Shown here piece by piece: positions 2,022 to 54,753 of a stretch of DNA of 64,000 nucleotides (the stretch's first letter is position 1; each line of letters starts with the position of its first letter). The DNA is from Morchella semilibera. Taxonomy: Eukaryota > Ascomycota > Pezizomycetes > Pezizales > Morchellaceae. The position numbers were made by a program, and so were the translations under genes. The stretch spans positions 5,825,613 through 5,889,612 of the forward strand of contig CM018603.1 in the NCBI GenBank assembly GCA_009192285.1. The letters are read 5' to 3'. Under the pieces are notes generated by a model. That model worked only from the letters and a program-made list of their open reading frames with translations. It did not search any database and was not told where the DNA came from.

Positions 2022-2251
2022 GACTAGTACTTATTTAGCAGCCACAGTGAGGTTTTACGGTGCCTTTTTTGCCTTAGATCTAGATTAATTAATATTAATT
2101 TCGTACCAAGCAACAGATGCGACAAACGTTGTGAAAATCAGGAACAGTTGTGCGGCTGAATGGCATTTGACGTCATACATGACCAACCAGGAGAGTTCAA
2201 TTACAAAAAGCAGTGTTCAAAGTGTGGCTGGAGAAGTTGTCTTTCACGGAA

Positions 2252-2260
2252 TATCACTCG
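2252..2260 (+). promoter_or_regulatory. TCAY-N4-TATCACTCG site 1
   Basis: Exact TATCACTCG with TCAC eight bases 5' of it. It lies about 510 bases upstream of the MRS2 start. Confidence 0.5.
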
Positions 2261-2359
2261 GTAGTTTTGTTGGATCGTTGTAGGTTCCTTTATCGTGATG
2301 ATAATAGACCTGATTGATTTATGAATGATAGGAAGAGGAGTAGTCCCGCTTGTCCCAAA

Positions 2360-3588
2360 TACATGTATCTACACGTATCTCTAATGTGTTATTGTCCTCT
2401 TCTTACGGCCTCGTTGTCTACATGTAATCACTCCATATATTGGACCCTAACCCTGTGTGTACCACAGACTTTGATGAAGACGCCCCATCCTATTCGGCGG
2501 GAATATGTTAGCTACATGTAAGTACATGTAAAGTGCATGTAGCTGGATCCTTGAACCTGTCGGTATGTAGATGAGCTTCCTCTTAATTGTCCATCTCGGT
2601 GTTTTACTCTGGCAGCATCACCTATTGCATGCAGACCAGGGCCTTGGCAATAGCACCACCTACATTCATAAAGCCTCGGGTTTCTTTTCGCGTCTTTCTG
2701 TAAAAAGGGTCACACCCAAAGAGCATACATGTAGTATTGGAACTCAAAGAGCATTCTGAATATATGTACACGGGCCCAAATTAGAATATAATTGTGAAGA
2801 GCCAGTGGTCTGAGCCATTCGTCATTCTAAATAATACATGTATATATTGGTTGGTGAAGGTGCGCGGCGCCGAGTCATGAATCATCACCCATCATCATCC
2901 ACTTGGTGTTAATAGCCGATACTCACTTTACTTAGATGACCAGCTACAGGCACTAGATACATGTATCTAGAGTACACTCGATAGAGCGGGAGCGATGGTG
3001 GTAGTCACCATCAACCCATCCCGCTTGACATTTCGTCTGGGTACGTACATACACATGTATGTACGTGTATACATGTATGTTTCAAACCTCCACATCCTGC
3101 CTTAGGCGGGGAACCAAGCAGTATAGCACCCAGAGCCATTGCTCCCGGACCTGGCGGCTACATGCAGTAACTATTTACGAGTACATGTAGCTACATGTAT
3201 GTACATGTACGTTCTTAATAGCCGAGGCCTATCTATTTAGTATATATCCAGGGTTAGGGGTGGGGCGGGTATCTTCCACTCCGGAGGAATTACTCACCGC
3301 TCTTGCCGCAATATAAGCTTTATTTGCAATTTTTTACGCACCACGCCATGTAGGACTTGTTACCCTCTCGGTTTCGTCGTCCCGGCGGTCATTTGGTTAC
3401 ATGTAATGTATCATGGTCTGGATCCACTACGAGGCCAAAATTGCCTCGACCTGTCAAAGTTTAGCTGACTGGTCTACAGAGTCTGGTAGAATTACATGTA
3501 TTAGAAAGTGGGTCTTGCGTGACTCGATAGTCCTATTATATTGGATCTTAAAGGGAGGAAAATAATAAATAAACAAAAGTTACATGTA
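2360..3588. repeat. Cluster of TACATGTA palindromes
   Basis: I count about 14 exact copies in 1.2 kb, several in runs such as the trio at 3182-3208. Copies are dispersed rather than in a regular tandem array. Confidence 0.7.
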
Positions 3589-3912
3589 GCCCTCCGGGGG
3601 TGGGGATCGAATTCACCCCATGCGCGGCTAGGTAACCTCCTCCACGACCACCCCATATATATCCATCCCCCACAACCCCTACAACCTCTCAACACATGAT
3701 AGTAGTGATCTTCTTTGCTGTTCTAAACCTTCTTTGTATACTGGGGGGGAGATGGATTCAATCAGACCCGAGGCGATTGGCCCTTTATAAGTACTCCAGG
3801 TACCCTTAATTACACAGTCTCTTGGTCCATGAAGTTCCTTTAAGAGAAAATAGGACTACCTGTATTGAGTCACGCAAGACCCACATTTGCTATAATTCTA
3901 GCAGACTCTGTA
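3475..3912. mobile_element. Terminal-inverted-repeat element, 438 bp, non-autonomous DNA transposon
   Basis: About 75 bases at each end are inverted copies of each other. Shared blocks include TACAGAGTCTG at the tips, GTGGGTCTTGCGTGACTC, and AGTCCTATT followed by CTTAAAGG. TA lies at both tips, as in Tc1/mariner-type insertions. There is no transposase ORF. The left arm contains a TACATGTA that the right arm lacks. Confidence 0.8.
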
Positions 3913-4286
3913 CGGAACACTTATGAAATACCTCACACGTACGTACGTTCCCATAACCACAAAATAAGAAGTATCATCAAACACCACCACAGGGGTAAAT
4001 TAGTACATGAAGTAGTTACAGGTATGTACCCACTCTTGCATGTTGCATGCGATAGGAATGCCGGCCGCGGCGAAATTAGGGGCGGCCAAGATGGCCTAAG
4101 TTGATCTACGGCTTGTCAAATGCTTACTTTACAGATGAACTATTGTTGCCTTAATTGCTTCCACTCCTACGCATACCTAACCAAGCTGGCTGGCTATATG
4201 CTGGATTGGCCCTCGATTGAGTTACTTACTACCTTTGCTAACTACACGCTAGGCTCCTTAATTCTCCCTAAATCTTATCTGACAGA

Positions 4287-5351
4287 ATGTTTTTCAAAAG
4301 AAAGCCAAGCTTCAAGCCAGATGATCTGCCAGATCTGTCGAACCCGGTGATTCTCGTTATAGGTGGAAATAATGGTATTGGGAAAGAGAATATCCTGGCC
4401 TTCTGTAGGAAGGGCGCAAAGGTCTACATGGCTGCTAGGACAGAATCAAAAACAGTATGTAAATTTGGTCATTATCTATCATATAAATTCTAAAATGTTT
4501 TAAGATACAGCTTGCTGCAATTCAGAATATCAAATCCAAAGTCCCCTCCGCAAGAGTTGAGTTCGTTGAAATGAGCCTTAGTTCCCTTGCCTCTATCAAT
4601 AGGGCTGTTGACGAGTTCATCAGGTATATATACATATACATATATGTATATCTAACAGCGTATAGATCCAAAACTGACATTCTGATAGTAAAGAAAACTC
4701 CCTTAATGTTCTCCCCAATAACGCTGGGGTTATGTGTCTCCATTATTCTAAGACCACTGATGGCTATGAGATCAAGTTGCTCCTCACCATTATCTCGACT
4801 GCAAAAGAAGAAAAAACTGTCCTCCAAATGCGGTGCGGACCGTTAATGTTGCCTCCATCGGACATAAGAGAGCTGGAACTATCACTTTTGATGACATACA
4901 CGACGAGAGCGGGAGTACTTGGCGCCGCTATGGCATTGTAAGCCATGTACGCTCTAGAAAATAAAACCCCTGCCAGTCTAAACTAGCAAGCATCTTGCAT
5001 GCCAAAGAATTAGCAAAGCGACTTAAGGAGCATGGCGCCATCGCGGTTTCGCTTCATCCAGGAACCATCAACTCAGGGCTATGGGAGGCAGCATCCTCTG
5101 GGATTATGGGAGCAGTCTCACGGGGAATTGCTAAGTGCTTTTTCACATCGCTGGAATTAGGCGTTTATAATAACGTTTTTTGCACGACGTCACCAGAAGT
5201 GACAATGGAAGATGCTGGGGGTTATTATGTCTCTGTAGCAGTCAAAGGTACAAGGATGATGCATACACCTAGTCCTGGAGCGATAGACGAAGGGTTTGCG
5301 GAGAAGCTCTGGGGGTGGCCGGAGATAGAAGTAGGGAAGCACGGGTATTAG
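4287..5351 (+). pseudogene. Decayed short-chain dehydrogenase/reductase
   Basis: The pieces follow a classical SDR in order. They are the start MFFKRKPSFKP, the cofactor loop GGNNGIGKE, the NNAGVM block, VNVASIGHKRAG, YGISKLA with the YxxxK pair (split by an intron at 4938-4976), and VSLHPGTI to the end. Introns near 4455-4504 and 4622-4659 still have usable sites. Defects are a frame change between DILIV and NNAGVM near 4690-4720, a one-base frame change near 4805-4835 at an A-run, and loss of about a dozen residues that normally follow GYEI. The intact version would be an NAD(P)-dependent oxidoreductase of the Bli-4/retinol-dehydrogenase-like group. Assembly error is possible, but two frame breaks plus a deletion argue for decay. 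Confidence 0.8.
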
Positions 5352-5890
5352 CTGAAAAGGGGTTTCCCTACTTGCAAGAAATTATTTTGCTGTGGTTGCG
5401 AGTGGTTTGGCCTTCTTATCAAGACTTGATGTGGGTATGATATTTTTCATAGGTTGGATAAGTCATCTGTACGAGTCTGGTTGTCCTGTATTCTCCATGA
5501 TCTCTGCCATAAAGAGCCTTGATCAAGGAAGGAAAAATGTAGGGCCACAGATGGGTGACGGAGGACGAATGTGTTAGCTATGCGCAAAGATCACCCCCTC
5601 TGTTGGAGAAATTCTACAGATAGCAACAGGTGTTTGATATACCAAAATGGATAGGTTACTCACTCACCATGGCCCCTAACAGAGATAACGATTTCTAGTC
5701 ATTGCTAAACTCTCGTAGCTAAGGGGGCGGTCGCTAGGAGGAAGTACTCCTAACTTGGTGGGGGTGAGACAATACCTATGCTATAGCATCAAGGAATTAA
5801 AGTTAAAAGCATCAGTATTCCTCCAATGAATATTTACTGTGGATGAGCCTGGCCTACAGATTAACAGTGGCCTTAAACCGGGTCATGAGA

Positions 5891-5899
5891 TATCACTCG
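5891..5899 (+). promoter_or_regulatory. TCAY-N4-TATCACTCG site 2
   Basis: TCATGAGATATCACTCG. No gene start is close; the nearest gene downstream begins at 7973. Confidence 0.45.
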
Positions 5900-6052
5900 T
5901 AGCAATCGTAGCATGAGGTAAAGTCCAGGGCTAGGAAAAATCAAACGATCTCTTGCCGATACGGGGACTATGCTGCATGCTAGTGTGCCCTCGGCCATGT
6001 GGGTGATGACAAAGGTCCTATGGAGGGGGAAAAAAGGATGAGATACGCAAAT

Positions 6053-6190
6053 AGACCAGCTTGCCCATCAACGAGCACGGCCCATCAGCGAGCGTTGCCT
6101 GCTATTTTTCCCGTCGCAACGGATGCTACCCACCAAACTTTGGGTGTACGCTCGTTGAGGGGCCGCGCTCTCTGGTGGGCAAGCTAGTCT
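6053..6190. mobile_element. MITE-like element, 138 bp, with about 43-bp terminal inverted repeats
   Basis: The left end AGACCAGCTTGCCCATCA matches the inverted right end AGACTAGCTTGCCCACCA. The match continues through GAGC, GGCCC and CGAGCGT to about 43 bases with few mismatches. AAAT flanks both sides, a likely target duplication. The interior is only about 50 bases with no coding. Confidence 0.78.
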
Positions 6191-6846
6191 AAATAAGGAG
6201 AGTGTAGGGTGGTTGTGGAAAAGAGAGAGAGTGGAGGTATGGTTGTACTGGATGCCAAGATCTCCGGCTGGTGGGGTGAGCTGGTGGGGTGGGCTGGGTG
6301 GGCTGGGTGGGCTTAGGGTAAGGGCTTGAGGTGTTCACGTAATATATATTCTGACTCGGCCAGGAATTCTCATGGGTAGTGTGTTTACCCAAGCTTCAAC
6401 GCTGTCCCGCCCTGCGCTCATATTTGTAAGGCCTCTAGTCAGTCAGCATCTCACAACGGTAACCAAGGCCTGATGAATGGGTTATTACACCTATGGGCTT
6501 TCTGAGTGCGGCGACTTCCTGGGTGGGCTAGGTAAGATCAAGAGCGTTCGCCGTTGGGCCAGAGCTTAAAAAAAGGCTTTGGATGAACTGGATGCTGGGT
6601 TGCAATGGAGATTGCATTATGTCGTCGTAAGTTGACGGAAGCTAGAAGGCTGAGTGGATGCGTATAGTGAACGTAAGAGCAGAGGATGTGTGCCCCATCG
6701 TGATGGCATATATGCGTGGCAGCATCTGGGTAGGGGCTTGACATATTCTCATATACCACCCCTTATCCTCTTGCCGCCACACAATCAACTCATATTGATG
6801 CAAGGCATGGATCACAAAAAAAAACGCATCACAAAAGTTCATGGGT

Positions 6847-6855
6847 TATCACTCG
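6847..6855 (+). promoter_or_regulatory. TCAY-N4-TATCACTCG site 3
   Basis: TCATGGGTTATCACTCG, about 1.1 kb upstream of the secreted-protein gene at 7973. Confidence 0.45.
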
Positions 6856-7972
6856 CTACACGATTCCCTCAACGACTCACACAGGAAGTATCGAGAAGCG
6901 AGCGGGTTTCTATTTGTAGTTTTTACCAACACTAATCTATATGTTTCTACTGTCGCACCGTATATAAAAGGTCGATTGGACAAGGCAGCAGTTGACGTGG
7001 AAGTTTCATCAAGCGGATTTTAATTCTTGTGGGATACATGCGCGGTACTGTGCGTTGGCGGGGTACTAACAGACTGAATTTTTGTAACAGACTCTCTTCG
7101 GCAGGGTTTAGACCTCGGGCTCCTGCTCCATGGGTTATAATAGCTGCACTTACCGTGCCAATTGACTTCCCATATGGCACGAGAATTTAGCCAGTTGGCT
7201 GACATGCGATGTATTTACAAGGGCGCGAAATTAACTATTTGCGGACAGTTACATGTAGAAACTCACACCCCATATGCCCATACAAAAGTCACCCCATTAT
7301 TCTCATAGGACGCAAATACATGTAGATTAAACAATTAGTATTAGGTACTAAGAGTTAAGGCTCAACCAATGCGGTTCATACTAAATATATTAACATTCCG
7401 AATATATAGTCCATACTAATTACATGTAGGTATGACCCAATTGAACCAGTGCATAGCTTGTTGGATACATGTAGGAAGTGAGCTCAAGGGGTCGGTCTTC
7501 CGCGTCTTATCAATCTATAACATATAGGCGCGTACCCTTCTAGCTTCACGATGTATCTAGCCGTGGTATGCGGCGTTAGAGCCAGCATACAACACCCTTA
7601 CAACTTCTGTGCATACATGTAACCTAGATGTACGGCGTTAATCAAAACTACATGTATTTTTCTCGATACACCCTTTTTTAACGGAGCTTTTTCTGGCCCT
7701 CTGGTAGTACTTCACATCTTGTGGTAGTCATTGGATCTGTGCAGTAGTATTCACCGTAATAGAATAGGACTCTTTTAACAAACACCAATATCCTCCACAA
7801 TGTTCAGGTTTAATTCTATATAGTTCTCTTATCTATTAACTTATACATGAGAGTGGGTCCTTGATTTGAACCCTTATTTCACTCAACTAATTCACCTTGC
7901 TTTTTGGCATCTGTTTCTTTCGTTTTCTTTCGTTTTCTTTCTTCCTTTTACATTTGTTATCTTTTTTTTACA

Positions 7973-8614
7973 ATGAAGTTCCCACTTATAATTAGCATCA
8001 TAACTTGCGTACTCGCAACCTACATCTCAGCCTCTCCTACTATAGTATTCCGTTATGTCGCGCGTAGCCTATCAGAATGGGGTATTGGACACTACGGCGG
8101 TACCGTCAGTGAAATCTCGAAACAGGAGGCATTAGAGCTAGAAAAATCCGTTGTCCTTTCGTTAGCGGCGTCCAGGACAATCACTACTATTACTTCCGCG
8201 TCTACAATTTCAACTGAGATAACTGAACCATCTTCCAACGGGGGGATTTTTACTAGCTGGAGCAGTACCTACACTACAACCATTACTGTTACCGCCACAA
8301 TAACGGTTATTCCTACCGCCAGAATTTTGGCCAAGCGGGAGGAGGCCTTGATTCCGGAACGTCAGTTGGCGTCTCCACTGGAAAGTAACGGCAAAGGTGA
8401 TACTGTTGCAGAGTTAAATGGGTCTTTTAGGACGCACACAATCGTCCTTGGAGATCCTTGCAACCCACCTTCGGAGAATGAGGAGGTTGATTATAAGATC
8501 TGCGTCGAGGGTATTGTCGCCATATGTAGGGCGAATCGTTTGGTTTGGGAAATCCATACGGATTGTACATGCTCTGGATTGGTCCGCGGCGCTATATATG
8601 CAGGCGCGAGGTGA
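7973..8614 (+). CDS. Small secreted protein, Thr/Ile-rich with Cys-containing C-terminus
   Basis: Predicted 213 residues with no intron. The start is placed at MKFPLIISII because it gives a clean signal peptide (about residues 1-20, ending near SAS). An in-frame ATG-less extension upstream reads as a pyrimidine-rich leader. The middle is rich in Thr, Ile and Ser, with short alternating beta-like runs near residues 65-115. A Lys-Arg pair near residue 124 could be a Kex2 site. The C-terminal 60 residues have a CNP...C.EG....C....DC pattern. That resembles the CBM19-like domain of the next gene (CDP...C.DG....C....QC), so I infer a distant relation. Function is unknown; extracellular or wall localisation is likely. 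Confidence 0.72.
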   Translation: MKFPLIISIITCVLATYISASPTIVFRYVARSLSEWGIGHYGGTVSEISKQEALELEKSVVLSLAASRTITTITSASTISTEITEPSSNGGIFTSWSSTYTTTITVTATITVIPTARILAKREEALIPERQLASPLESNGKGDTVAELNGSFRTHTIVLGDPCNPPSENEEVDYKICVEGIVAICRANRLVWEIHTDCTCSGLVRGAIYAGAR

Positions 8615-13362: not shown

Positions 13363-13628
13363 AGGGTGATGGGAGTTGGTATTCTGTAGTTAGGGTTTTT
13401 TAGCATTGGGTTTTATGGACTGTAGGTGCAGCCTTTACTAAATTTGAGGTTTTTATATTGTTCACAGTACTGTTCTCTTTTATCTGGTCGTCCTTATGAG
13501 AGTGTGCATATTCGTTCCTCTAGTGATCTCGAATCGAGATGTGATTATCGCTCTGTAAAATATGTACTTTTTTGATATTCTTATTTCACATACAGAATAT
13601 CCTCAAAAACCAGTCATCGTGTGATAAC

Positions 13629-14122
13629 CTATGATGAGGCCTTGGCTAAGTTCGTGACCTTCTCCTCAATCTGCTTATCGGTCAATCCTACACCCCCGAC
13701 GCTCACTATTAGTACCTTCTCAATTGGACACCCAAGGGGTAACTAACCAGTAAGCGATTCCTGCTTCTCAACTCCAAACTCTGTATCCCCCCATAAATTA
13801 GCATTCCCTCCCCACACTCGCACGGGGCAAGGGTAAATGATCCACCACGCACCATATCTAGCAAACACCTTTGGCTCAATACCCGTCGCCTCCCTGATAA
13901 GGATGGGGGTGTGCGGGTTGTGTTTCTTCATGACCGGGTACGACTTTTGAAGGAACGACCTGTGTGGGCGTCAATTGCAGTAAGTGAGTGATCAGGCTAT
14001 TTGAAAACTCTCAGGCGGGGAAAGAGTCAAACGAACCTGACAGCAGCACTGTGCTCGCCAGTTTGGCAAAAGAGGAAGCGTAGCTCCTTGAGCTGATTTG
14101 CAAAAGCGTATCGAGTGGCCAT
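13629..14122 (-). CDS. NADH:ubiquinone oxidoreductase 10.5 kDa subunit (B8, NDUFA2 family)
   Basis: Accessory subunit of respiratory complex I with a thioredoxin-like fold, on the matrix side of the mitochondrial inner membrane. Four exons (14037-14122, 13853-13959, 13748-13780, 13629-13687) give 94 residues, the family's usual size. Diagnostic blocks are MATRYAFANQLKELRFLFCQ at the start, PVMKKHNPHTPILIREA in the middle and ARYEFGVEK across a junction. Intron 1 has a GTTCGT donor. Exon 3 is only 33 bases. It is transcribed away from the pyruvate-carrier gene, sharing a 361-base promoter region. Confidence 0.95.
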
Positions 14123-14483: not shown

Positions 14484-15101
14484 ATGTCGCAAGCAGCTGC
14501 CCAGACGGCCACCAAGGCCTTGAATCCCGCCTTCAATCCTAGGACAGTTCACTTCTGGGTCAGTCATACATTCTCTAGCAATTAACCCTTCTCTCTCTAC
14601 TTCAACCAGCTAACCGTTTTCACAGGCACCCGTCCTCAAGGTATGCACCACAAATCCACAGCTTAGCTTCCCCTCCCCCGCCAAGCTGACGCATATATAC
14701 ATGTAGTGGGGACTCGTTATCGCTGGAATTAGCGACTTCTACAGACCCGTTGAGAGTTTGTCGGTTACACAGAATACAGCCTTGTTCGCGACGGGGTCCA
14801 TCTGGACTAGGTGGTGCTTGATCATCTCGCCCAGGAACATCCCGTATGTAGTCTTTTTGGTGTCATTAAATGGTCACGTGGGCAGTGAGGGCTGACTCTG
14901 AGGGTGCTAGGTTGGCGGCGGTTAACTTCTTTCTGGCGGGTGTGGGGTCGGTCCAGTTGGGAAGGATCTTTTTGTGAGTTTTAATTTGGTTGTTGGGCTT
15001 GGACGAGTGCTAATTGATGGTGATGTCGACTGAATAGTTACAACCAGAGCTTGAAGAAGAACAGCCCGATCCTCAGTAAGCTCGAGGAGGTAAAGAATTG
15101 A
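14484..15101 (+). CDS. Mitochondrial pyruvate carrier subunit (MPC2/MPC3 type)
   Basis: Subunit of the heteromeric pyruvate importer of the mitochondrial inner membrane. Five exons (14484-14558, 14626-14640, 14707-14843, 14911-14973, 15038-15101) give 117 residues; exon 2 is a 15-base micro-exon coding APVLK. Family blocks are HFWAPVLKWGLVIAGISDF, TGSIWTRWCLIISPRN and AAVNFFLAGVG, marking the membrane helices. Intron 2 ends in a TACATGTAG acceptor, so one of the abundant palindromes lies inside a functional splice site. The MPC2-like class is favoured over MPC1 by the ISDFYRP and TRWCLIISPRN stretches. Confidence 0.94.
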
Positions 15102-18514: not shown

Positions 18515-19521
18515 AATACCGTACTCTTTAACTACATGTGACATAACTTCATAAGGGATTCCAAGATCGAGATCTATCTTGATCTTACATCCGGCAGATG
18601 GACTACAGACGCGGGGGCCTGTCTTGACAAGAAGTTGTGGGGGACACCATACAGCACTTGATGTTCATTAATTAGCCCACCTCAGGAATGGCGTTCAAAA
18701 TTACGGGGGACCGCAGCTGCATGATGATGCCAATATTTCTCCCAATAACCTCGGCCAGACTCTGAAGGGGAGATCCTGAACACACGTATTTTAAAACAGC
18801 TAAATTACAAGGTAACAGGGATCCTAGCTTCTCGCCGCTCCAGTTCAACAAAAATATTCGGGAAAACCTTTCTTATTTGGAATGGGATAAAACAAGAGAG
18901 AATGGAACGATTATGGCTTCATGCTGCTGCATTACCGTGTTCTTAGCCACAGTTGAAGCAGTAACATCATTAGCTAGCACGTAAGGTGCGGGGAATCCTC
19001 GTCTATATAGCAGATAACTTACATATCTGATTCCCACCCCAAAGTAAACGGCTGTAATACAAGTATCGGAAAGTATAACCCCGAAGGTTCGCTTTAACAT
19101 ACATGTGCGAAGTTTTCGAAAGTCCCGAGCACACTGCCTTATTTGTTCAAAGATGGGCGTTTGGTAATTAATAAACAGGAATTCATTTACACTGCTGAAA
19201 GCGATAAGCAACCATTAAACGATCGTGAGAAGCAAGGTTTGGATGAACATCAAATACTCCATCAATATTATGTATGGATCACTGCGTAGAGTTTCGGAAC
19301 GTTTCCTTAATTGCCAAATCTTGAGAACTCCCTAAACCTAGCGGTTGTATGATCATGACTGACCAGAGAAGTCTACATGATTGGGGAGGTAGAAGAAGTC
19401 CTCTAAATCTGCGATGTTATTGGTGGCCTTCATGCAGCGCGGTCCAATGGAGAAAGGATTGTCGACCAAATCAGGTCATGGGCTGTTTCTAAAACTTCAT
19501 GTGCATGTTTTCTTCACCGGA

Positions 19522-19530
19522 TATCACTCG
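19522..19530 (+). promoter_or_regulatory. TCAY-N4-TATCACTCG site 4
   Basis: TCACCGGATATCACTCG, 233 bases upstream of the SDR start codon and in the same orientation. Confidence 0.55.
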
Positions 19531-23631: not shown

Positions 23632-24208
23632 GGCTTATGATATAACGGGTGACGAGAGTAATGGATGACAGGTACAAAAAAGGGCGCGTTTTGGCATTAC
23701 ATAGCTATAGGGTTTTAATTCATAGGTCTTGGGCTTGGGTTTAGATGGTTACTGGATGGCTGTTTTATTCTTGTTACTCGTTTGATTCGTCTTTATCCCT
23801 TTACTAACTACTTTACCTTTTGATACCAATTTTTCTTTCTTGATTCTTTCTAGTACTGCGCGTTTACATTAACTACCGGGGAACAGCTGGCGCGTACATG
23901 ATCGAGGATAATAGTTAGTTGTTATCGTTATACATAGCAGATTGGTTGTACTCTCCCTCCTCCTGGAACGAGGGGTATATATTTTGTAAGATAAATAATA
24001 AAAGAGAATCGGATGTGCAATTATGACCGAGTGACAGGTAGTGATGTGGATGAGTCATGCGGGGTTTATTTAGTATGCGTTGCAGGGACTCTCCCCACCC
24101 CTCAAACTAGAATAGGCATTTCTGACTGACCCCACTACTTTACGCTCACCCGCTACCAGCTCTCCCATTCCCTCTTCTCTCACAACCAGTTCTAGGAAAA
24201 CTACAATA
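23632..24208. other. Intergenic, nothing recognised
   Basis: 3' flank of the kinase and promoter of the tRNA synthetase. There is a CT-rich tract near 24140-24190 just before the synthetase start. Confidence 0.55.
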
Positions 24209-25640
24209 ATGACAGCACAAACCCCACAAGAGAAGATCGAACTTATCACTCGAGGACTTCAAGAAGTCCTCAAACTCAACATCATCGAGGATGTAATTAT
24301 AAAAGAGAATAGGCCACTCAAGGTTTACTGGGGTTCGTGGTTATACATCCGCCATTGACTTATAAAACGCTAAACCCTCATGATTCCACAGGAACTGCGC
24401 CAACTGGTCGCCCACACTGCGGCTACTTTGTTCCCATGGTTAAGCTCGCCCACTTCCTACGGGCAGGTTGTGAAGTCAAAGTGCTCCTTGCCGACATCCA
24501 CGCCTTCCTCGACAACCTCAAAGCGCCTCTAGACCTCGTCGCCCTCCGCGCAAAGTACTACGAGTACGTTATCAAGGCGGTTCTGACTGCGATTGGTGTT
24601 CCCATTGACAAGCTCACATTTGTCCTCGGCTCATCTTACCAGGTGACGCCAAAGTACAACATGGACCTGTTGCGCATGACGACCATTGTCTCTGAGCACG
24701 ATGCTAAGAAAGCTGGTGCTGAGGTCGTGAAGCAGGTGGAAAGCCCGCTACTCAGTGGGTTGATCTACCCGCTGATGCAAGCGCTGGATGAGGAGCATTT
24801 GGATGTGGACGCACAGTTTGGTGGTGTTGACCAAAGAAAAATCTTTACATTGGCAGCAGAACAGCTACCTAGCGTTGGATTCAAAGTGCGAGCTCATTTG
24901 ATGAACCCCATGGTTCCGGGACTGGCCGGGGGGTATGCTAAAGACTTTTTTTCTCATTTGTCTACGGTGTATATGCTAATTGAACATCAGAAAGATGTCA
25001 GCGTCAGATCCAAACTCAAAGATCGACCTTCTCGACCCCCCAGATGTCGTCAAATCTAAGCTGAAGAAGGCTCAGTGTGCGCCCCGCGAGGTTGAAGGCA
25101 ATGGGGTCTACAGCTTCGTTGAGTATGTCCTCTTCCCCATTTCGGAGCTCGCCCACCCAGAAGGAAAGGGCAGCTTCGTCGTCAACCGCGACGAGAAATG
25201 GGGTGGTCCCGTCACCTACAACAACATCGAAGAGCTGAAGGCAGACTACGTTGATGACAAGGTATTAGCCCCCCCCCCCACCCCAATGGGTCACATGGCA
25301 CTAACGATAACAGCTCTCCCCGATGGATCTGAAAAACGGAGTCCAGGAAGCGTTGAATGCCATCCTGCAACCAATCCAAGCTGCCTACCAAGCCGACGCA
25401 GAGTGGCAGAAGACTGCCGATCTTGCATACCCCTCTGAGGGTCCCAAGAAGGGCAAGAAGAAGGAGAAGAAGATTGGTACGGGATACGTTCCCAAGGACA
25501 AGAAAAACGCCGCTGTGGCCGAGCAGGTTGCCGATAGTGCGATCAAGGCACAAAATGCAGTTCCTGAGGCATTAGGAACCGATGCCAAGGATGCGCTGGA
25601 TAAATTAAATCTCAATGAGGAGACGGGGAAGAAGGAGTAG
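24209..25640 (+). CDS. TYS1: Cytosolic tyrosyl-tRNA synthetase
   Basis: Charges tRNA-Tyr with tyrosine; class I synthetase. Exons 24209-24332, 24392-24932, 24991-25261 and 25314-25640 give 420 residues. The HIGH-type signature appears as [10 protein letters not shown] (about residue 45), Tyr-pocket blocks as [11 protein letters not shown] and [11 protein letters not shown], and the KMSKS-type loop as [17 protein letters not shown] (about 222), split by an intron exactly before Lys. The C-terminal Lys-rich stretch ([12 protein letters not shown]) is usual in fungal enzymes. The archaeal/eukaryotic type of sequence shows the cytosolic rather than the mitochondrial form. Intron 1 uses a GTTCGT donor. 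Confidence 0.96.
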
Positions 25641-26996: not shown

Positions 26997-28607
26997 TTTT
27001 ATTGATCCTGGAAGGATTTGCCAACTGTTTTTTAAGTATATATAGTTGTGGTTGTAGTTTTAATAAAACTGAGGAACTAATTATTTGCAAGCTGGAGGCC
27101 GATGATGCTAACTAATGGTGGAATTGAAATATCTAGGCACAGCAGGAGGAAGCCCAGGGCTTTTATACTTTCCACTAGTCTATACCATGGTTCCTTTAGG
27201 CGCTCCCGTTACTTCTAGAAGAACTCGGCCAGACCCTCAGAAAGCTCCTTTGCTGTCTGGGGTTTACAGTTCTCCGGCGACTAGACATCTTGCATGGGCC
27301 ATGCGTTTAGACGCGGGATTTTCGGAGTTAATGCTGGCCTGCATTAATGATCGAATTGATCTGATAAGATAACAATCCTGGTAGGGCTTTGAGTTTCCAT
27401 TGACGGAATTAAGAAAGAACTCCAGTAAAGGTTGGTAAAATTTTGATATTGAATTCTGCTCCCACGAACTGATCGGGCTTAACTCCAGAGGTTATCTCCA
27501 TATGGATCGACTAGGAGGTTGGAAGGATGATATAATCAAGCCGTTGGTTGCGGGACACGCCCTAGCAACGATTGATCTAGCCTATTCAGGAAATTAAAAG
27601 CGTACTTAAGTATCTTACTCAACCAAAACATTCGTTAAACATACTTACTTACAGCTCGAGAACATCCCCCGCAGACGGACACTGCTTTGTTAAAGCTAGA
27701 GGTGGCCCGTTCCCAGCCTCCATACAAAAAAAAAGCAAGGTTCGGTTGATATTGGATAAATCATCACTTCTCACTCGGTCCTACCCGAGTGGAGTAAGGA
27801 CAGTGTATACTCTTCTTTATTTTTATTATTTCCTTAATTATATAGATCCTATAGGGATACTGACAACACCCTGTTGTAATATGTGTTGCTTCCGAGAGTT
27901 GTCAACCTTTATGCGTAGGTCTATTTGCCGGGTACACACACACATACATGTATATACATACCGCCATAACCAAAAGATTGGCTATGCATATGAGATCAAG
28001 ATTACTTAGTAGACAAGATCTAGATAATTACTGGCTAGGTAGTTTTTCGGGTTTTTACGGTATATGTCTACAGCTCTCTTGTCCTGTAGTAGTCAAATCA
28101 ATAAAAGCCTCTCTCCAGTCAGATCACAAAATACCCAACATAAAATTTTCCTCGCCATCGTCCCCCTAAAGTAAAGAGAAGGGATAAAATAGGCAAAGAA
28201 AAAAACAATCTTTCCCTCTCCCTTTTTGTATCGTGCCACATGTAATCAAAAGCCTTCTCTCATACCGTATGTAACACACATGTATTCACCTTCAGCCCAA
28301 TGAATCGTTACCCTTCTGTCACCACCCAAAACATTATTTCCCTCGTAACACTGAAACATCGTCCTAGTTTAGACACAGCATTCTTCTACATGAGAACTAA
28401 TTTGAAACGTCCCTCTCCCCCTGATATTTACATTAAATAGACAACTAGCCGTTAAACTGCTATTATCCTCTCCTTTGTGTTACATATAGTTCCGAATTTT
28501 TCTCCCGAAGCAGCTATAAAACCCCCAGCAACTGCCAGCCCGCACCGGATTTACATACTCTAGTCCGCTATCCCCCCTTCGTCTCAGAAAATCAAATAGA
28601 AATAGAA
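26997..28607. other. Intergenic region between the AKR and the isocyanide synthase
   Basis: No gene supported. An 85-codon ORF at 27115-27372 has no recognisable domain. A TATA-like run near 27036-27045 may serve the AKR on the minus strand. One TACATGTA lies at 27946. Confidence 0.55.
28515..28520 (+). promoter_or_regulatory. TATA box of isocyanide synthase gene
   Basis: TATAAA, 93 bases upstream of the start codon in a C-rich context; spacing is right for a short leader. Confidence 0.55.
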
Positions 28608-31841: not shown

Positions 31842-32122
31842 GTTCTGGTGAGGGCGCCGATATTAAGAGTACTATAGTGAGCTGTGTTTAGATGTTGAGA
31901 TTGCATTTAAGGTTGGTCAACGATGTAGAGGTACATGTATGTACATGTATTTTGTAAGCACACGTGACTGAGTTTTGTAATTGAATTATTCTGTATATAC
32001 AAACCCCCCCGAACGGTTTATATCCCCCTTTTATGGCTCGAAAAACTTCTTTTTATTCTATTTGATATTTTTATAGATTTTATGAGTGGTAGGTTTCCAT
32101 GAAGGGCGAGTGAGTCATGAAG

Positions 32123-32131
32123 TATCACTCG
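32123..32131 (+). promoter_or_regulatory. TCAY-N4-TATCACTCG site 5, inside a palindrome
   Basis: TCATGAAGTATCACTCG, 282 bases upstream of the TRM44 start. It forms the right arm of an inverted repeat with GCGAGTGA at 32106-32113. Confidence 0.55.
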
Positions 32132-33104: not shown

Positions 33105-33113
33105 CGAGTGATA
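33105..33113 (-). promoter_or_regulatory. TCAY-N4-TATCACTCG site 6
   Basis: On the minus strand TCACGAGGTATCACTCG; 200 bases upstream of the PLAC8 gene and just upstream of its TATA box. Confidence 0.55.
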
Positions 33114-33129
33114 CCTCGTGATCTCTAAA

Positions 33130-35347: not shown

Positions 35348-41045
<5,698 letters not shown>

Positions 41046-42386: not shown

Positions 42387-42784
42387 ACGCGGACTCCTAC
42401 TTCACTCAGTAATGGGGTGTTTTGACCAGATTTGTATTCTTGACGTATCAAGTGAAAAAAAGTGTTTCTAGTAATTAATGACACCGATCATGTTCTATTG
42501 CTGTCCCCTGTTTTATTCGTGGCGGTTATCCATGAGACATGCGAATCTATAAATTAAATACAAGAAGAATGAACAACATGGTGATCCTGGTACGGTGAAG
42601 TGGGAAAGGGGTAAACACATCTTTGTTGGCCTGTTGGATTACGAGTGGCGCACAGGCACTCTGGCTACAATGTAGTATAAACATTTCGGCTGTTTATTTT
42701 TTATATAATTAGCATTTCCAAATTATAAAAGGAAGGGGGAAAAAAACTGATACCCCCAAATATAGTTTGCCAAGAATCACAAAT

Positions 42785-42793
42785 TATCACTCG
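42785..42793 (+). promoter_or_regulatory. TCAY-N4-TATCACTCG site 7
   Basis: TCACAAATTATCACTCG. It lies between two convergent genes, so it is not an obvious promoter element here. Confidence 0.4.
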
Positions 42794-42881: not shown

Positions 42882-42935
42882 GTCTCGTTCCCAGACTATC
42901 GCGCAGAACCAACCACTACAGGCTGGGCATGAGAC
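42882..42935. mobile_element. MITE, 54 bp, GTCTCG family, short copy
   Basis: Ends GTCTCGTTCCCAG and, inverted, GTCTCATGCCCAG, bordered by TA on both sides. It is an internally deleted relative of the copy at 32933. Confidence 0.75.
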
Positions 42936-42937
42936 TA

Positions 42938-43124: not shown

Positions 43125-43469
43125 TACCTAATGTATATTATTTAGTCAAGACCAGAGATTTTGGTGGCTGGGTTGAGTCTGCACGCCCCGTTACCTCGGG
43201 TTTTGGTAGTTACTTATATTCACATGATCGCGTAAGCTTAAGACCGATAAATCTCGAAAATCTACCAATAGGCATCTATATTTCATATAAATTGGAAGGA
43301 AATAAAAAGATTAAGAGTGCCCAAATGAAATGAAGTACGACCAATTGTTTTTTAGCCCTCCATTCTACACGTATTGTATTGAGCTCCAAAAAGAAAAAGA
43401 CCTGTCAAGATGTATGAGCACGACTCGATATAGGCCTCATCGAATATTAAGTACTTACCTAACTCGCCT

Positions 43470-48618: not shown

Positions 48619-49500
48619 GTGAGGAAAGAAAAGGCTCAGGTTGAGGTAACAGCTCAGATAATCTACAGGTTCTGCTGTGATTCTGGATATCTTTTTAACT
48701 TTTGATAATAACTAGTTGGACATCACTCCATGCGTTGCTCTTGCCACAAAAACACTCCTAGTTATGATAATTATGATAATTGTTATGAATTCGAAAAATT
48801 TGTATGCATGTCATATTCACAGAACTACGTTCTATCGTCTTCTAAAGCTCGATTTGGTTTCCATGCATACCGGTGATAAAACTACGATGATTGCTAGGCC
48901 CCTTGGCGAATGACATTATATCCCAAAGAACTCGATTTCGTGCATGCATAAAATCGATTTCTCCCTCTCCAAGTGAGTTTGTGGACAGACTAGTACAGCT
49001 CATAATATCATCAGCGCTATTTCTTTTTTCAACTCCCCGCTATCCCGGTTCGAGCAAACCCTGGCGGTATTGTTTCGATCTCGCTGCGCAGGAAACTGCA
49101 CTTTCTCCCCAGCCTCTCAACCTCACAGGATATCGGCAGGGAACCCCTAAAGGCGCTAATCATATGATCTATGTAGTAAATTTGCGTCAGGTCTTACCGC
49201 CAGATACATATAGATATAAATATATAGGAGCTATAGTTCTATATGCGCGAGGTTAATTAAGGTCTCACTATTCTACCAATGCTAAAAAGGGAACCTACGC
49301 AGACCTCATGTTCATTAATCATAACCTCGCTGGCACCCGCAAGGATTCATAAGATTTGGACTCCCGATCAGCATTCATTTATGTATCGTTGTCACAGATG
49401 ATCACTCGTAAATATGACTGATGGGAATCACTCGAATATCAAATCACAAGGCTTTTAACTCGCTACAGGTAGTATTTGATCTCGATTCTTGATAGCACGC
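48619..49500. other. Intergenic region
   Basis: No gene recognised. Two imperfect relatives of the TATCACTCG motif occur near 49397 and 49429. Confidence 0.5.
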
Positions 49501-50235
49501 CTACTTCAGCTCCACAGCTCCCTCTGGAACTCCCTGCATACTCCTCAACCTCTTCGCGAAAAACTCCATGATTGGCTTCACTTCTTCCATACTTTTCATC
49601 ATCCCATCACCATCCCTACCCTTCCACTTGACAACCTTGACAAAGTCGAACCTCTCCTTCATCTTTTCCTCTGCGGTTTTATCAATCGCCGAGTTCTTCT
49701 CTGCGCCCAACAGCAACACTGGCGTCGCGCTCTTGAGCCCTCCAGCCTCGACCTTCTCCAGATCCGACGGCAGCGCACCTCCGACCGAGATCGCACCCCC
49801 ATACTCCACGCTCCTGTTCCCCGCCGGAATATCCACAGCCACCATCCCGCCCTGTCCAAAGCCAAGGAAAAAGATGCTTCTAGGATTCCACCCACATTTC
49901 TTCACCAGCGCCTCGTCCACAACCTCCCCCAGGAGTTTCCTTGTTCTCTTGAACCCACTGTCGCCGTCGAGCCCGCCGGTAGACTGGTCAAAGATGATAT
50001 CGTCGCCCCAGTGGAACCCATTTATATCGAACGGCAGCGGCGTGGGGCCCTTGATCGCAAGACAGGCGGTCTCGGGGAGGTTCAGGTTTGTGCCTAGGGC
50101 TGCGAAGGGCTCATGGGTGTCACCGAGCCCGTGGAAGAGGAGGAGGATGTTCTGTGCGGCTTTGGCGGGGGTTTTAAGCGTGTAGACAAGGCCGGAGGGG
50201 AAGTCGGAAGATTCGGGGAGGCGGTGAGTAGACAT
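49501..50235 (-). CDS. Alpha/beta hydrolase, phospholipase/carboxylesterase-like, nucleophile serine replaced
   Basis: Single exon, 244 residues from the ATG at 50235; an in-frame ATG at 50295 would add 20. The fold is clear: ILLLFHGLGDTHEPFAALG (strand 3 and oxyanion region), then LPFDINGFHWGDDI and a nucleophile-elbow position FFLGFGQGGM. It matches the acyl-protein thioesterase/carboxylesterase superfamily. In active members the elbow is GxSxG; here it reads Gly-Phe-Gly-Gln-Gly, so serine hydrolase activity is doubtful. I recall the same GFGQGG in related fungal proteins, so it may be a family trait and not damage. Role unknown. Confidence 0.82.
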   Translation of the reverse strand: MSTHRLPESSDFPSGLVYTLKTPAKAAQNILLLFHGLGDTHEPFAALGTNLNLPETACLAIKGPTPLPFDINGFHWGDDIIFDQSTGGLDGDSGFKRTRKLLGEVVDEALVKKCGWNPRSIFFLGFGQGGMVAVDIPAGNRSVEYGGAISVGGALPSDLEKVEAGGLKSATPVLLLGAEKNSAIDKTAEEKMKERFDFVKVVKWKGRDGDGMMKSMEEVKPIMEFFAKRLRSMQGVPEGAVELK

Positions 50236-50786
50236 TGAAGCTGTTTTTGTCCGACGTAATAATGGGGCTCTAGCCGGGGGGTCTTGACTGAGCATCCCCG
50301 CTAATTCAGGGTAACGCCAATGATTAACTAACGAGAAAATAATAATAACAAAAATGATTCAAATAAATCTATTGTTACTAGAAGGTATTTTATTTTATAC
50401 AAAAAAAAGCAATATATAACCAAATACACATAGAAACAATAATTAGTTAAACCTTAGCCCTACAGAAACAGCCTCCACCGTAGCTTCGCGTTTCCTGTTT
50501 AAACGAATTTAAATGTGGGGACTAATTCCAAGTCCATATTGCCACTCCTAAAGGGGTCTAAGAAGCACTAGAGGGAGCTTAGGCCCACCGGCGCTCGGGG
50601 TGCTGCTGAGATCCTAAAGCTATATATATATTAGCTGTCAAACGGGGACCAGAGAACCAAAGGAAGATCGAGATGTCAGGCAAAAAGGAGGGCACAAAGA
50701 ATAAACCAAAACCTATAGGAGGAGAACCTTCCACGACGAAACTGGGTGGGGAGGAGCAATCCAATAAACCCTAACCCTATATATTC

Positions 50787-50795
50787 CGAGTGATA
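50787..50795 (-). promoter_or_regulatory. TCAY-N4-TATCACTCG site 8
   Basis: On the minus strand TCATAGGATATCACTCG, same orientation as the hydrolase gene and 552 bases upstream of its start, next to the telomere-like decamer. Confidence 0.5.
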
Positions 50796-50820
50796 TCCTA
50801 TGAACGCGGTTACGATCAAT

Positions 50821-50844
50821 TATTTATTTATTTATTTATTTATA
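50821..50844 (+). repeat. TTTA microsatellite, six units
   Basis: Perfect tetranucleotide run ending in TATA. Confidence 0.9.
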
Positions 50845-51360
50845 CTCCATACATGCATGCAGCTCTTAGGCTATGGCAGCCATGATCTCCTCCCTCTTCC
50901 GATCAACTGATAAATTGAGCCGTTGAGCTATAATACCACTCGCCTGAACTATTCATTATGGACCTTCGGGGTAACGTCTCCTCCCCCAGCAACATTACAT
51001 TTTACAGGTTCGTCGTAGCTTGAAGGGCTAATTGCTCAAGCCCCCTCCCCCTCCCCCTCCCCCCTCTCCCCATATACATACATGTATCCCGCAAGCACTG
51101 TATGATACCCGGGGCCATCTACGTATACCGGACGTTTTCTTTTTGTTGTTTATCACGATATGATAGCACTATAACTAACTTTGAACCACCCCGCCGTGTC
51201 TTGGTACATCCCACATTCCTGTGACCCCGTCCATTATGAAGGGGAGAGGTACCGCCCGCCAAGCCCCCACAGGGGACGAGGACTCCACACAACCCAGCCA
51301 GGTCACGGCCGGGGGCGCGGCATGACCCCGCGGTCGAACGCTTCGCCACCAGTCATAGAG

Positions 51361-51369
51361 TATCACTCG
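51361..51369 (+). promoter_or_regulatory. TCAY-N4-TATCACTCG site 9
   Basis: TCATAGAGTATCACTCG, 1.1 kb upstream of the hydrolase start and beyond the end of the Sgf11-like gene. Confidence 0.4.
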
Positions 51370-51983
51370 CGCTCACGGCTCTTCCGGACAACAAAAAAAG
51401 CAATATCTCCAACTGCCCACTACACAAACACATGCCCCTCCTGAAAGGATTACAACGCCTGTTATATGTAGTAGTTTATTTACTTTACACAAAAAAAGAA
51501 GGGGAAAGACTCATACGACAAAATTCTCTAGTCCTAGAAAAAGAACAAAAAATAAACACAACAACACACGCAATAAGTATGAGAAGAAGAAGAAAAGCCC
51601 GCTACATAACTACTCTCTCTCAAGAGGAAAGAAAATCAAAGGCTACGGAAGCTTTTCAACCGGAACACATACAGAAGGGGGAAAGGGGGGACGACGATGC
51701 AGGAATTCGAAACGAAAATGAAGATAAACCAAACAAAAAAAGACAATCCGATACAAGATGATATGACTCCGCCACCAGTTGGTTTTATACAAAAAATAAA
51801 AGACAAATCACACAAAAATGAAGAAATAAAGGTTAATATAAAAAGAGTAGGTCCCAAAGAGAACAAAAAGGAAACGCACAAAATGAAACCCATGCCATAA
51901 AGAAGGGAAAGAATAGGAAACTAGATAAAAACAAACAAAGGCACTAAGTATCCCCATTGGCACTTGCACAAATATATATAAAC

Positions 51984-53904
51984 TTACTCCTTCGGTCCCT
52001 TCCTCGCAACGCCAGGCACAGGGACCGTTTTGCCCGGAACCCTAGGCACTGGCACGGTCTTGCCCGCTACACTTACAACTTTCTTGATCTTTGGCTTGGT
52101 AACCTTCTTCACTGGGCTAGCACCGTCACCTACACCGACGGTGCCGGTGCCGGCACCAGCACCAGCCGCGGCTGCGGCTGCGGCTGCGGCTGCTTTCTTG
52201 GCTGACCCGCCCAATGCGCCCGGTTTTGGTTTCCGCTGCTTTGGTGTTGCACCCAACGAGGACGCACCCATAGGGGGCGCGGCAAGCGGGCCTGTAAGTG
52301 GAGCTGGAGGTTTTGGAGGGAGAGACTTATGCGTTATTGGCGGTGATGCGTGTGGTGCGGGCGATGATTTCTGTTTGATTATTAGTATGATATATAAAAA
52401 CAGGACAAAAGCTATTTGACATACCCTAATCGTCTCTCCCTTCTTGCTGCTTCCACCACCAGGACTTGGGCTGTTTGTGCGGTTCTTGAACTTGCTCAGC
52501 TGGCTCTTCTTTACGCTATCCACGCCCGTCGGTTTCTCTCCCAGGGCCAATTTCTGCTTCTTCGGCGGTGGTTTCGACACGGGCAGCGACACCGTAATGG
52601 CGTCCCTGCTTTCCTCCCCGCCCGCCGCCGTTGTCGCTGCAGCCACATCTGCCGTGGCTGCGGCCAAAGTATCTGTTTTTCGCTTCCGCTTCTTCTGTGT
52701 TGGCTCCTTCGCCAGTGCAGGCGGCGGCAGCGGCGGCAGTGACGGAACATCAATCGGCTTCGTGGGCGTCTCCAGCATCGCTAATAGCCCCTTATCGTCT
52801 TCCGGCGGTACCGACGCCGCCTTCGCAGCTGTCGCCGCAGTTACCGCTACAAGAGTCTTCTTCTTTTTCTTTTTCGGTGTCGGCGTACCACCCGCCAGAT
52901 CCGTCACAGACGTCGCAAAGATCGGTTTTGGCGGGAGCACTGGCGTCGCCGGTGGCGGGGCCGCGACCTCCTCGAGCGGAACGGGACTCTTGCTCTTCTT
53001 CTCTGGACTAGGCTTGCGACTCGCCGTCTTGCTGCCCTGAGCGGTAGCGTCCGCGGCACTAAGCATGGGGCTCCCGGCGCCGCTTCCCGAGTTGCTGTTG
53101 TTCATCTTAGCCATTGCCGCGCGAGAGCTCTTCCGGCCGAGGCCAAGACATTTCTCCAGATGCTTTGCAAAGTGACTTGGTGCGACCTTCTCCTTGTCGC
53201 AGCACGTGCACTTAAAGTAGACGGCAGCGCCCTTCTTCCCGTTCCCGGTGGTGATGGTGACCGCGGTGCCCTCCTCAGTGGGCGAGTCACCCGCCTTGTT
53301 GTTGTCGCCCTTCTTACCGGCGGCCTCCTTGACGGTGGGGAACGGGTTCCCGTAGATGTCGTGGAAGGGCGCGTCCTGGAAGGGGAGGCGCGGGCAGAAC
53401 TTTTTCCTTTGCGCGGCGGCGGTGGTGGTCTCGAGCGTGTGCGCAGTGTGCTGCGGGAGGTGACAGCGCGAGCATATTATCTCTGTCGGGACGATCGCGA
53501 GAGGGTTTACATTTGCCGCGGGTGGGGGGAACCATCAGTGGTGGGGGGGAGAAGGTGCAGCTGCTTCGTACGGAGGAGCTTCTCGGAGCGGTGGGATTGC
53601 AAGGCGATGTCGTGCGTGATGTTTGCGAGAAGATCAGAGAAGATCGAGAGGGACTAAAGGTGTAGTATTAATACCTGTGCGCGGAGGAAGGGGGAGGGTG
53701 AGTGTGAGTGTGAGTGTGAGATATATGTGTGTGTGTATGTGATAGAGAATGGAATGAGGCGGGACAAGGGAAGAGGAGGGGGAGGAGGGAGAGGAGGGGG
53801 AGGAGGGAGGGGGGGGTTCCCACCAGGCCAGCGAGGGAATTGGGGGGTACACTGTTGAGGTCAGAATCATCACCACTGGAACCAGACGGGCTTGAGGAAG
53901 TCAT
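51984..53904 (-). CDS. SAGA complex Sgf11-like protein with long basic C-terminal region
   Basis: Sgf11 tethers the Ubp8 deubiquitinase module of SAGA. Proposed exons 53824-53904, 53533-53653, 52425-53482 and 51984-52370 give 548 residues. The start MTSSSPSGSSG leads to an N-terminal helix IFSDLLANITHDIALQSHRS as in Sgf11. EIICSRCHLPQHT and HDIYGNPFP follow, a filamentous-fungal block. The zinc finger is FKCTCCDKEKVAPSHFAKHL then EKCLGLGRKSSRAAM. The remaining 380 residues are Lys/Pro/Ala-rich, disordered, with Ala runs and nuclear-localisation-like KKRKRK and KKKKKK. The first intron is CT-rich and its ends are the least certain. The stop codon overlaps a perfect splice donor (GGAGTAAGT), so another 3' exon may exist. 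Confidence 0.77.
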
Positions 53905-54271
53905 TATTCCAAGTCAATCTATTCCCGGTATTTTATGATGAAAGTTCTGTGTGCTTCCAAATAGATTCGAGTCGAGTCCGAGTAGTGGTGAGGTCTGTCT
54001 ATCTGTCTGTCTGCCTTCTGTAGATCCGTAGTGGGTGGTGTTGAGAAACAGAGCTCCACACGTGACAACGTGGATCTTCAGCCGGAACTTTGTTCCAGGT
54101 GCGCTGATAGCTCACTGAGAGCCCCCGAAGAGCGATTCCAAGTTCATGTATAGGGAGTTTCGAAGCAGGCGATGGCTCTGGGCACGTGTAATTATATATA
54201 ACAATGAAGCTGAAGCACAGAGACCTAGCAGAGCAGCGTTGAAGGCCGAAGAGAGCAAGGACGAGCACGGA

Positions 54272-54354
54272 ATGGGGGGGGGGGGGAAGAGATAGAGAGG
54301 GGGGAGGAGGGGGAGGGAGGGAGGGAGGGAGGGAGGGAGAAAGAAAGAAAGAAG
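54272..54354 (+). repeat. G-run and GGGA/GAAA low-complexity tract
   Basis: Thirteen Gs are followed by GGAGG and then GGGA and AAGA repeats, all purine. It could form G-quadruplex or triplex DNA about 370 bases upstream of the Sgf11-like start. Confidence 0.8.
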
Positions 54355-54744
54355 ATGACTGAGTGAGCGAAGGTGAGATATATTGATTATATTGATTGGC
54401 CAGATTTAACGATGAAGAGACGATCGATTGTGCTGTCAACGGGGAAACGCTCCCTGGAAATTAAAGAGCCTCAAAATTAAATTATGCTTATGTAAGATTG
54501 GCACTGTCGATCTCGATAAAGAGTGCGCAGTAGATAGAGTACATGTACTAGCAGTGGGACTTCACGGTTCTAAGTGGGGAGTGTCGTGGATGATTTCGCG
54601 GGACAGCTCTCCCGGTGTTTGGAAGAGGTGGGGGAGGTGGGGGAGTGGGAGTGGGGGGAGAGAGAGAGAGATCGAACATAGTCTCTAAGCTATATATCCC
54701 CCCATATCCACCGGGTGCTCATTGGTGGTGATGGCTTCATAGAA

Positions 54745-54753
54745 TATCACTCG
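54745..54753 (+). promoter_or_regulatory. TCAY-N4-TATCACTCG site 10
   Basis: TCATAGAATATCACTCG, about 840 bases upstream of the Sgf11-like gene. Confidence 0.45.

What the first reader, a model, noticed from the sequence alone, without database searches (positions are those of the whole stretch)
2248..54753. A 17-base pattern TCAY-N4-TATCACTCG repeated ten times, all intergenic
Exact TATCACTCG occurs at 2252, 5891, 6847, 19522, 32123, 33105(-), 42785, 50787(-), 51361 and 54745. By chance about 0.5 copies are expected on both strands of 64 kb. Every copy has TCAT or TCAC at the same distance 5', while flanking bases differ, so these are not recent copies of one transposon. Weaker relatives lie near 49397 and 60160. 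Several lie 200-550 bases upstream of starts (MRS2, SDR, TRM44, PLAC8, hydrolase). This looks like the site of a sequence-specific protein, or the fixed core of an ancient repeat.
Basis: seen in the sequence. Interest (0 to 1): 0.85.

Follow-up and report, generated by a model that had tools for sequence, protein, structure and literature searches.

The report
Unknown protein's binding site across morel genome
A fixed 17-letter DNA pattern recurs thousands of times, mostly between the genes, in what is very probably a morel mushroom genome, with unrelated DNA around it, which points to the docking site of a DNA-binding protein that has not been identified here.

Summary
In detail: all ten copies of TCAY-N4-TATCACTCG are at the stated places; shuffles gave none. 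An eleventh TATCACTCG (24244) lacks TCAY and lies in a predicted coding exon. The assembly (56.76 Mb, 23 contigs) matches Morchella crassipes. Genome-wide there are 3,424 exact copies against 2 for the reversed pattern, and 8,925 against 88 with one mismatch allowed. Flanks of 34 distinct copies are essentially unrelated. The refined site is (A)TCAY-RRRN-(T)-ATCACTCG: two ATCAY half-sites 10 bp apart in direct repeat, with rigid spacing (6,041 at native spacing). In 278 kb not chosen for sites, 71 of 75 are intergenic (60% expected) and 2 of 75 coding (37% expected). They are not concentrated upstream of genes, show no orientation bias to genes and no long-range orientation domains, but close neighbours tend to point the same way. 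Best reading: the bipartite site of one abundant sequence-specific DNA-binding protein, acting genome-wide like yeast general regulatory factors or an architectural factor rather than as a promoter-specific activator. The protein, its binding and its function are not shown; conservation in other species could not be tested.

The parts
2244..2260 (+). exact site
2875..2891 (+). degenerate site, matrix score 13.9
5883..5899 (+). exact site
6839..6855 (+). exact site
13618..13634 (-). 1-mismatch site, matrix score 21.3
15004..15020 (-). 2-mismatch site, matrix score 14.3
19514..19530 (+). exact site
24028..24044 (-). 1-mismatch site, matrix score 18.5
27761..27777 (+). 1-mismatch site, matrix score 20.2
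32115..32131 (+). exact site
33105..33121 (-). exact site
42777..42793 (+). exact site
49392..49408 (+). 1-mismatch site (G at position 9), matrix score 22.0
50787..50803 (-). exact site
51353..51369 (+). exact site
54737..54753 (+). exact site
60151..60167 (+). 2-mismatch site, matrix score 17.0

Best explanation
Each copy is a binding site for one abundant sequence-specific DNA-binding protein of the fungus. Inferred from the site: the protein has two recognition modules (for example two Myb/homeodomain-like or helix-turn-helix modules, or an array of zinc fingers) that read two ATCAY half-sites exactly one helical turn (10 bp) apart on the same face of the DNA, the second extended to ATCACTCG, across a purine-rich but otherwise free spacer. 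Inferred function: it occupies thousands of intergenic positions and keeps them open, or acts as a boundary or roadblock between transcription units, as general regulatory or architectural factors do, rather than switching on a set of promoters. Shown: the motif, its copy number, its rigid geometry, its intergenic bias. Not shown: the protein, binding, and function.
For: 3,424 exact copies against 2 for the reversed pattern; 8,925 against 88 with one mismatch allowed. Flanks of 34 distinct copies are close to random. Matrix by EM: about 92 sites, high information at TCAY and ATCACTCG and little in between; at score 13 there are 104 hits against 3 for the reversed matrix. Spacing: TCAY-N5-ATCACTCG 6,041 against 7; N0-4 232 against 48 and N6-14 696 against 67, each summed over all those spacings. 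In held DNA, ATCAY to ATCAC starts 10 bp apart: 38 hits, against 0-9 at each other spacing from 5 to 25. Tolerance is uneven: 2,617 copies differ from the pattern only at position 9, while the other 12 fixed positions together give about 2,884 (differences). Spacer position 5 is A or G in 88 of 100 listed exact copies. In 278 kb not chosen for sites 71 of 75 sites are intergenic (expected 60%, p 3e-12) and 2 of 75 coding (expected 37%). TACATGTAG and TATCACTCG lead the ranking of 9-mers by forward against mirrored count in intergenic DNA. Cores pack head to tail; 19 of the 100 listed head-to-tail pairs have period 18, that is nearly abutting sites.
Against: No binding or expression data exist here, and no second species could be searched. 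Copies are not concentrated upstream of starts (KS p 0.34, 55 distances), so a promoter role is unsupported. The boundary role rests on weak signals: 20 of 51 distances fall 300-750 bp past predicted stop codons against 11.6 expected (p 0.011, five bins tested on each side, uncorrected), while the distribution as a whole does not differ (KS p 0.21). Same-orientation bias of close pairs (165 against 66) is partly local duplication, as in L001 and L028, and the gap ranges of the three searches differ. Density is uneven along C1 (variance 5.6, mean 2.7 per 50 kb), not explained. By a Markov z-score the core ranks third among 7-mers (counting a word and its complement once, second) but is not in the top 14 of 8-mers or 9-mers. 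Two of 27 exact copies in the 278 kb are in predicted genes. No partner motif near sites was convincing.
Confidence: 0.75

Rival explanations
1. A classical promoter element: a transcription factor binds it upstream of target genes and switches a regulon.
For: In the window five of the ten exact copies lie about 190-510 bp upstream of predicted starts (models); 16 of 41 sites between two predicted genes are in divergent spacers.
Against: Distances to start codons do not differ from intergenic background (55 distances, KS p 0.34; 12 at 100-500 bp, expected 11.0). Divergent/tandem/convergent 16/18/7 is close to what random positions give (1797/2495/1071). No orientation bias where the nearest gene end is a 5' end (14 same, 17 opposite). 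8 sites lie in 10 kb with no predicted gene (L028).
Confidence: 0.2
2. Fixed core of an ancient dispersed repeat (transposon end, MITE, SINE).
For: Several sites in L028 sit in diverged local repeat units with similarity extending upstream of the site (BLAST matches of 31-60 bases); some tandem arrays have similar units.
Against: Flanks of 34 distinct copies are nearly flat on both sides (highest of the flank positions 0.41 bits, at position 39), and the spacer inside the motif is nearly free while its neighbours are nearly invariant. Single mismatches pile up at position 9 instead of spreading evenly. Near absence from coding sequence also fits selection.
Confidence: 0.05
3. Promoter or processing element of thousands of small non-coding RNA genes (as the Ruby motif marks nematode piRNA genes, recalled), read at a fixed distance from a transcript.
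For: Generic intergenic placement, clusters in one orientation such as L028, slight strand asymmetry of composition around sites (97 sites).
Against: No clear conserved element in the 43 bases after the site (34 copies; small signals only, A at position 39 in 19 and T at position 31 in 17); no Rfam family at gathering score in the four sources searched (window, L028, L001, L026). No RNA data were available.
Confidence: 0.07
4. Recognition box for a replication-initiation, meiotic-pairing or domesticated-transposase (CENP-B-like, 17-bp box) protein.
For: Length (17 bp), bipartite geometry and dispersed intergenic placement would fit such readers; this is by analogy, recalled.
Against: Nothing tested points specifically to it. 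Orientation along 2.95 Mb of C1 shows no domains (161 listed exact sites, 77 runs, 81 expected), so no sign of chromosome-scale polarity there.
Confidence: 0.1

Closest known systems
Yeast general regulatory factor sites (Abf1, Reb1, Rap1, Tbf1)
   Same: Long, information-rich sites in intergenic DNA, with nucleosome exclusion or roadblock roles (Reb1 roadblock termination and nucleosome-free regions: passages of PMC9531808). Abf1's left half, TATCACT in good sites, equals this motif's TATCACT; Rap1 reads a direct repeat of half-sites (both recalled).
   Different: The ACG that completes an Abf1 site is not enriched downstream here (positions 20-22). Consensus counts (consensus recalled) in intergenic held DNA, forward/mirror: Abf1 6/5, Reb1 20/16, Rap1 0/0, Tbf1 30/17, Cbf1 12/8, against 54/1 for this motif. 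Promoter enrichment, usual for these factors (recalled), is not seen.
CTCF and other architectural zinc-finger sites of animals (recalled)
   Same: Long site with thousands of copies, mostly intergenic, near neighbours biased to one orientation.
   Different: No long-range orientation domains on the stretch tested; no protein or contact map tested.
CENP-B box and pogo-type transposase sites (recalled)
   Same: 17 bp, bipartite, plausibly read by two tandem helix-turn-helix modules.
   Different: Letters differ; copies are mostly dispersed, not in satellite arrays; the reader protein was not searched for.

Membership tests
Abf1 binding site | RTCAYT-N4-ACG (recalled) | tested here: not met
   No ACG preference at positions 20-22; Abf1 consensus at mirror level, 6 against 5.
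Abf1 binding site | Abf1 protein encoded in the genome | tested here: inconclusive
   PF04684: 0 matches, but the 14 control genomes gave none either.
General regulatory factor site | Many high-information copies in intergenic DNA, avoiding coding sequence | tested here: met
General regulatory factor site | Enriched in promoters upstream of starts | tested here: not met
   Distances to predicted start codons match intergenic background (55 distances); true transcription starts were not available.
General regulatory factor site | Bound in vivo by a protein that displaces nucleosomes | not testable with these tools
   Needs ChIP, DAP or ATAC data.
CTCF-like architectural site | Orientation domains along the chromosome | tested here: not met
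   161 listed exact sites on C1 0-2.97 Mb: 77 runs, 81.2 expected, p 0.28. One chromosome stretch only.
Dispersed repeat / transposon core | Similarity extends into flanks | tested here: not met
   34 distinct copies, nearly flat flanks; exception L028.
Known non-coding RNA family | Rfam match | tested here: not met
   0 matches at gathering score in window, L028, L001, L026.

The most novel reading that the evidence does not exclude
The motif is the site of an as yet undescribed fungal architectural or boundary factor, a functional counterpart of CTCF or Reb1 in morels, that marks intergenic DNA genome-wide; its close-packed head-to-tail sites would make it a polar element. A second dispersed motif, TACATGTA, may be the site of an independent factor of the same class.
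Probability: 0.25. Interest if true: 0.85.

Novelty: new member of a known kind. Interest (0 to 1): 0.62.

Why it matters
Genome-wide organising DNA-binding proteins are known in detail in budding yeast and animals; I recall no well-described counterpart in filamentous ascomycetes (one paper search on this, listed one review on lysine deacetylases, not opened). A 17-bp site with over three thousand exact copies, in what is very probably an edible morel, gives a ready bait: one DNA pull-down could name the protein, and one ATAC-seq data set could say whether it opens chromatin.

Tried and rejected
Ancient repeat: rejected on flanks, spacer and mismatch pattern. Promoter element: no positional enrichment. 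Abf1, Reb1, Rap1, Tbf1, Cbf1 consensus: none stands out as this motif does. GATA-factor site through TGATA: the base following GATA on that strand is a purine in only 42 of 100 listed copies (position 8). Orientation domains: absent on the stretch of C1 tested. Partner words within 150 bp of sites: none convincing. Co-occurrence with TACATGTA: none. Haplotype comparison for conservation: L022 and L033 come from two near-equal contigs and are 100% identical over 8 kb, so uninformative. Abf1 protein family: no match, uninformative because the controls gave none. Literature: TATCACTCG (44 papers, 40 listed) and CGAGTGATA (64 papers, 40 listed) gave, by titles and abstract starts, nothing on such a fungal motif; Morchella with cis-regulatory, motif and intergenic 0 papers; ATCACTCG with fungus and binding motif 1 paper (listing only). 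Gene models come from my own simple exon-intron predictor trained on long ORFs, not from a published annotation; L034 and L035, fetched later, were not run through it.
Full report
Check of the observation. TATCACTCG occurs 11 times in the window; 100 shuffles gave a mean of 0.37 and at most 4. With TCAY eight bases upstream there are 10 copies, and no shuffle gave one. It missed 24244, which lacks TCAY and lies in a predicted coding exon. The ten exact copies are all outside predicted genes.

Which genome. The window lies in contig C1 of a 56,756,124-base, 23-contig assembly, with C1 7.34 Mb long. A passage of PMC13208314 says the M. crassipes genome has 23 scaffolds and spans 56.76 Mb; the abstract and passages of PMC7014384 give 23 scaffolds, longest sequence 7.34 Mb, GC 47.3%, 11,565 genes and median intergenic length 1,603 bp. 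The window is therefore very probably from Morchella crassipes. This is an inference; the tool names no species.

Genome-wide count. The exact pattern has 1,734 forward and 1,690 reverse copies; the reversed (not complemented) pattern has 2 and 0. With one mismatch allowed: 4,482 and 4,443 against 51 and 37. Contigs C9 and C10 have nearly equal lengths and are identical over the 8 kb compared, and C12/C13 and C21/C22 share site pairs at nearly the same coordinates, so these counts are inflated, by roughly a tenth (my estimate).

Anatomy. Thirty-four distinct exact copies show little conservation on either side of the 17 bases; the highest flank position has 0.41 bits (A at position 39 in 19 of 34). 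An EM matrix on about 278 kb held at that time, partly loci chosen for sites, finds about 92 sites: A preferred at position 0; TCAY; purines at 5 and 6; nearly free 7-8; T at 9 in 68%; then ATCACTCG nearly fixed. At score 13 there are 104 sites against 3 for the reversed matrix. In the 100 exact copies listed, spacer position 5 is A or G in 88, position 6 in 79, position 7 in 76, position 8 in 58. The site thus holds two ATCAY half-sites in direct repeat, 10 bp apart. The distance is rigid: N5 between TCAY and ATCACTCG 6,041 (control 7), N0-4 232 (control 48), N6-14 696 (control 67). The latter two exceed their controls; many of the listed N6-14 matches contain a natively spaced copy as well. 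In held DNA ATCAY-ATCAC pairs at 10 bp number 38, and 0 to 9 at each other spacing from 5 to 25; with the known sites and genes masked, 6 remain at 10 bp against 0 mirrored, and 7 at 6 bp against 3.

Selection rather than decay. From,424 copies are exact, 2,617 differ only at position 9, and about 2,884 differ at one of the other twelve fixed positions, on average about 240 each. The four spacer positions are nearly free. A decaying repeat would lose its positions more evenly and keep traces in the flanks (inference).

Placement. With my own gene models, in 278 kb not chosen for sites (the window, L009-L027, L030-L032), 71 of 75 sites are intergenic, 2 intronic and 2 coding, where 59.5% and 36.7% of bases are intergenic and coding; of the 27 exact copies among them 25, 1 and 1. 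All 17 sites of the window are intergenic, so outside it 54 of 58 are. Including loci chosen for sites: 99, 3 and 2 of 104. Distances to starts match background (55 distances, KS p 0.34), and so do distances to stops as a whole (51, KS p 0.21), with a weak excess at 300-750 bp past stops (20, expected 11.6, p 0.011) and a weak lack within 300 bp (4, expected 9.5, p 0.048), uncorrected for the five bins tested on each side. Spacer types are as for random positions, and there is no clear orientation bias to genes (nearest 5' end 14 same and 17 opposite, nearest 3' end 24 and 17).

Neighbours. Pairs of the core ATCACTCG with gaps of 5-35 bases: 165 head-to-tail, 40 tail-to-tail with the same gap range, and 26 head-to-head with gaps of 18-48. 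Nineteen of the 100 listed head-to-tail pairs have period 18, that is nearly abutting sites. On C1 up to 2.97 Mb, 23 of 29 adjacent exact sites less than 2 kb apart share orientation (p 0.002), five of those pairs from the L028 region; beyond 2 kb there is no clear correlation, and the number of runs is as expected. This takes the capped listings as complete up to their last place. L028, 10 kb without predicted genes, has eight sites all on one strand, some in diverged local repeats.

Other motifs. Ranking 9-mers of intergenic DNA by forward against mirrored counts gives two families on top: TACATGTAG and TATCACTCG. By a Markov z-score TCACTCG ranks third among 7-mers, but the core is not in the top 14 of 8-mers or 9-mers, probably because its sub-words are themselves enriched. 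Known general-factor consensus sequences (recalled) are at or moderately above mirror level (Tbf1 30 against 17).

Mechanism. A rigid, 17-bp, two-part site with half-sites one helical turn apart is what a single protein with two linked DNA-reading modules on one face of DNA would need (inference). Thousands of intergenic sites without promoter focus suggest a factor that shapes chromatin or bounds transcription units (inference). The reader protein is not identified. PF04684 (Abf1) gave no match, but its controls gave none either. Conservation across species could not be tested because no fungal relative is held (the genome has no relatives here).

Verdict. I found no description of the site in the papers searched, which cover only open-licence PubMed Central and were seen as listings.

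Noticed in passing
window and most loci; e.g. G000:C1:83487-83502: A second dispersed intergenic motif, the palindrome TACATGTA, extended TANNTACATGTANNTA: 155 sites in held DNA, 153 intergenic; genome-wide 3,317 sites of the extended form against 251 reversed. No association with the first motif. A paper search for TACATGTA with fungi listed 4 papers, two on Phytophthora promoter motifs; none was opened.
   Followed up: partly
contigs C9/C10, C12/C13, C21/C22: Near-duplicate contigs: C9 and C10 have nearly equal length and are identical over the 8 kb compared; the other two pairs share site pairs at nearly the same coordinates. Possible assembly duplication or two haplotypes.
   Followed up: partly
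L028 (G000:C1:1433001-1443000): 10 kb without predicted genes, with eight sites in one orientation, several inside diverged local repeat units, some followed by T-rich stretches.
   Followed up: partly
G000:C1 about 0.61-0.79 Mb and 1.86-2.36 Mb: Stretches with few exact sites, although sampled 8-kb pieces (L034, L035) hold long ORFs that look like ordinary genes to me (not tested against a library). Unexplained.
   Followed up: partly
window 24244-24252: The only TATCACTCG of the window without TCAY lies inside a predicted coding exon, a natural negative control.
   Followed up: yes
L001 1501-1553; G000:C1:5477752-5477828: Tandem arrays of the motif with periods of 18 and 23 bp.
   Followed up: no
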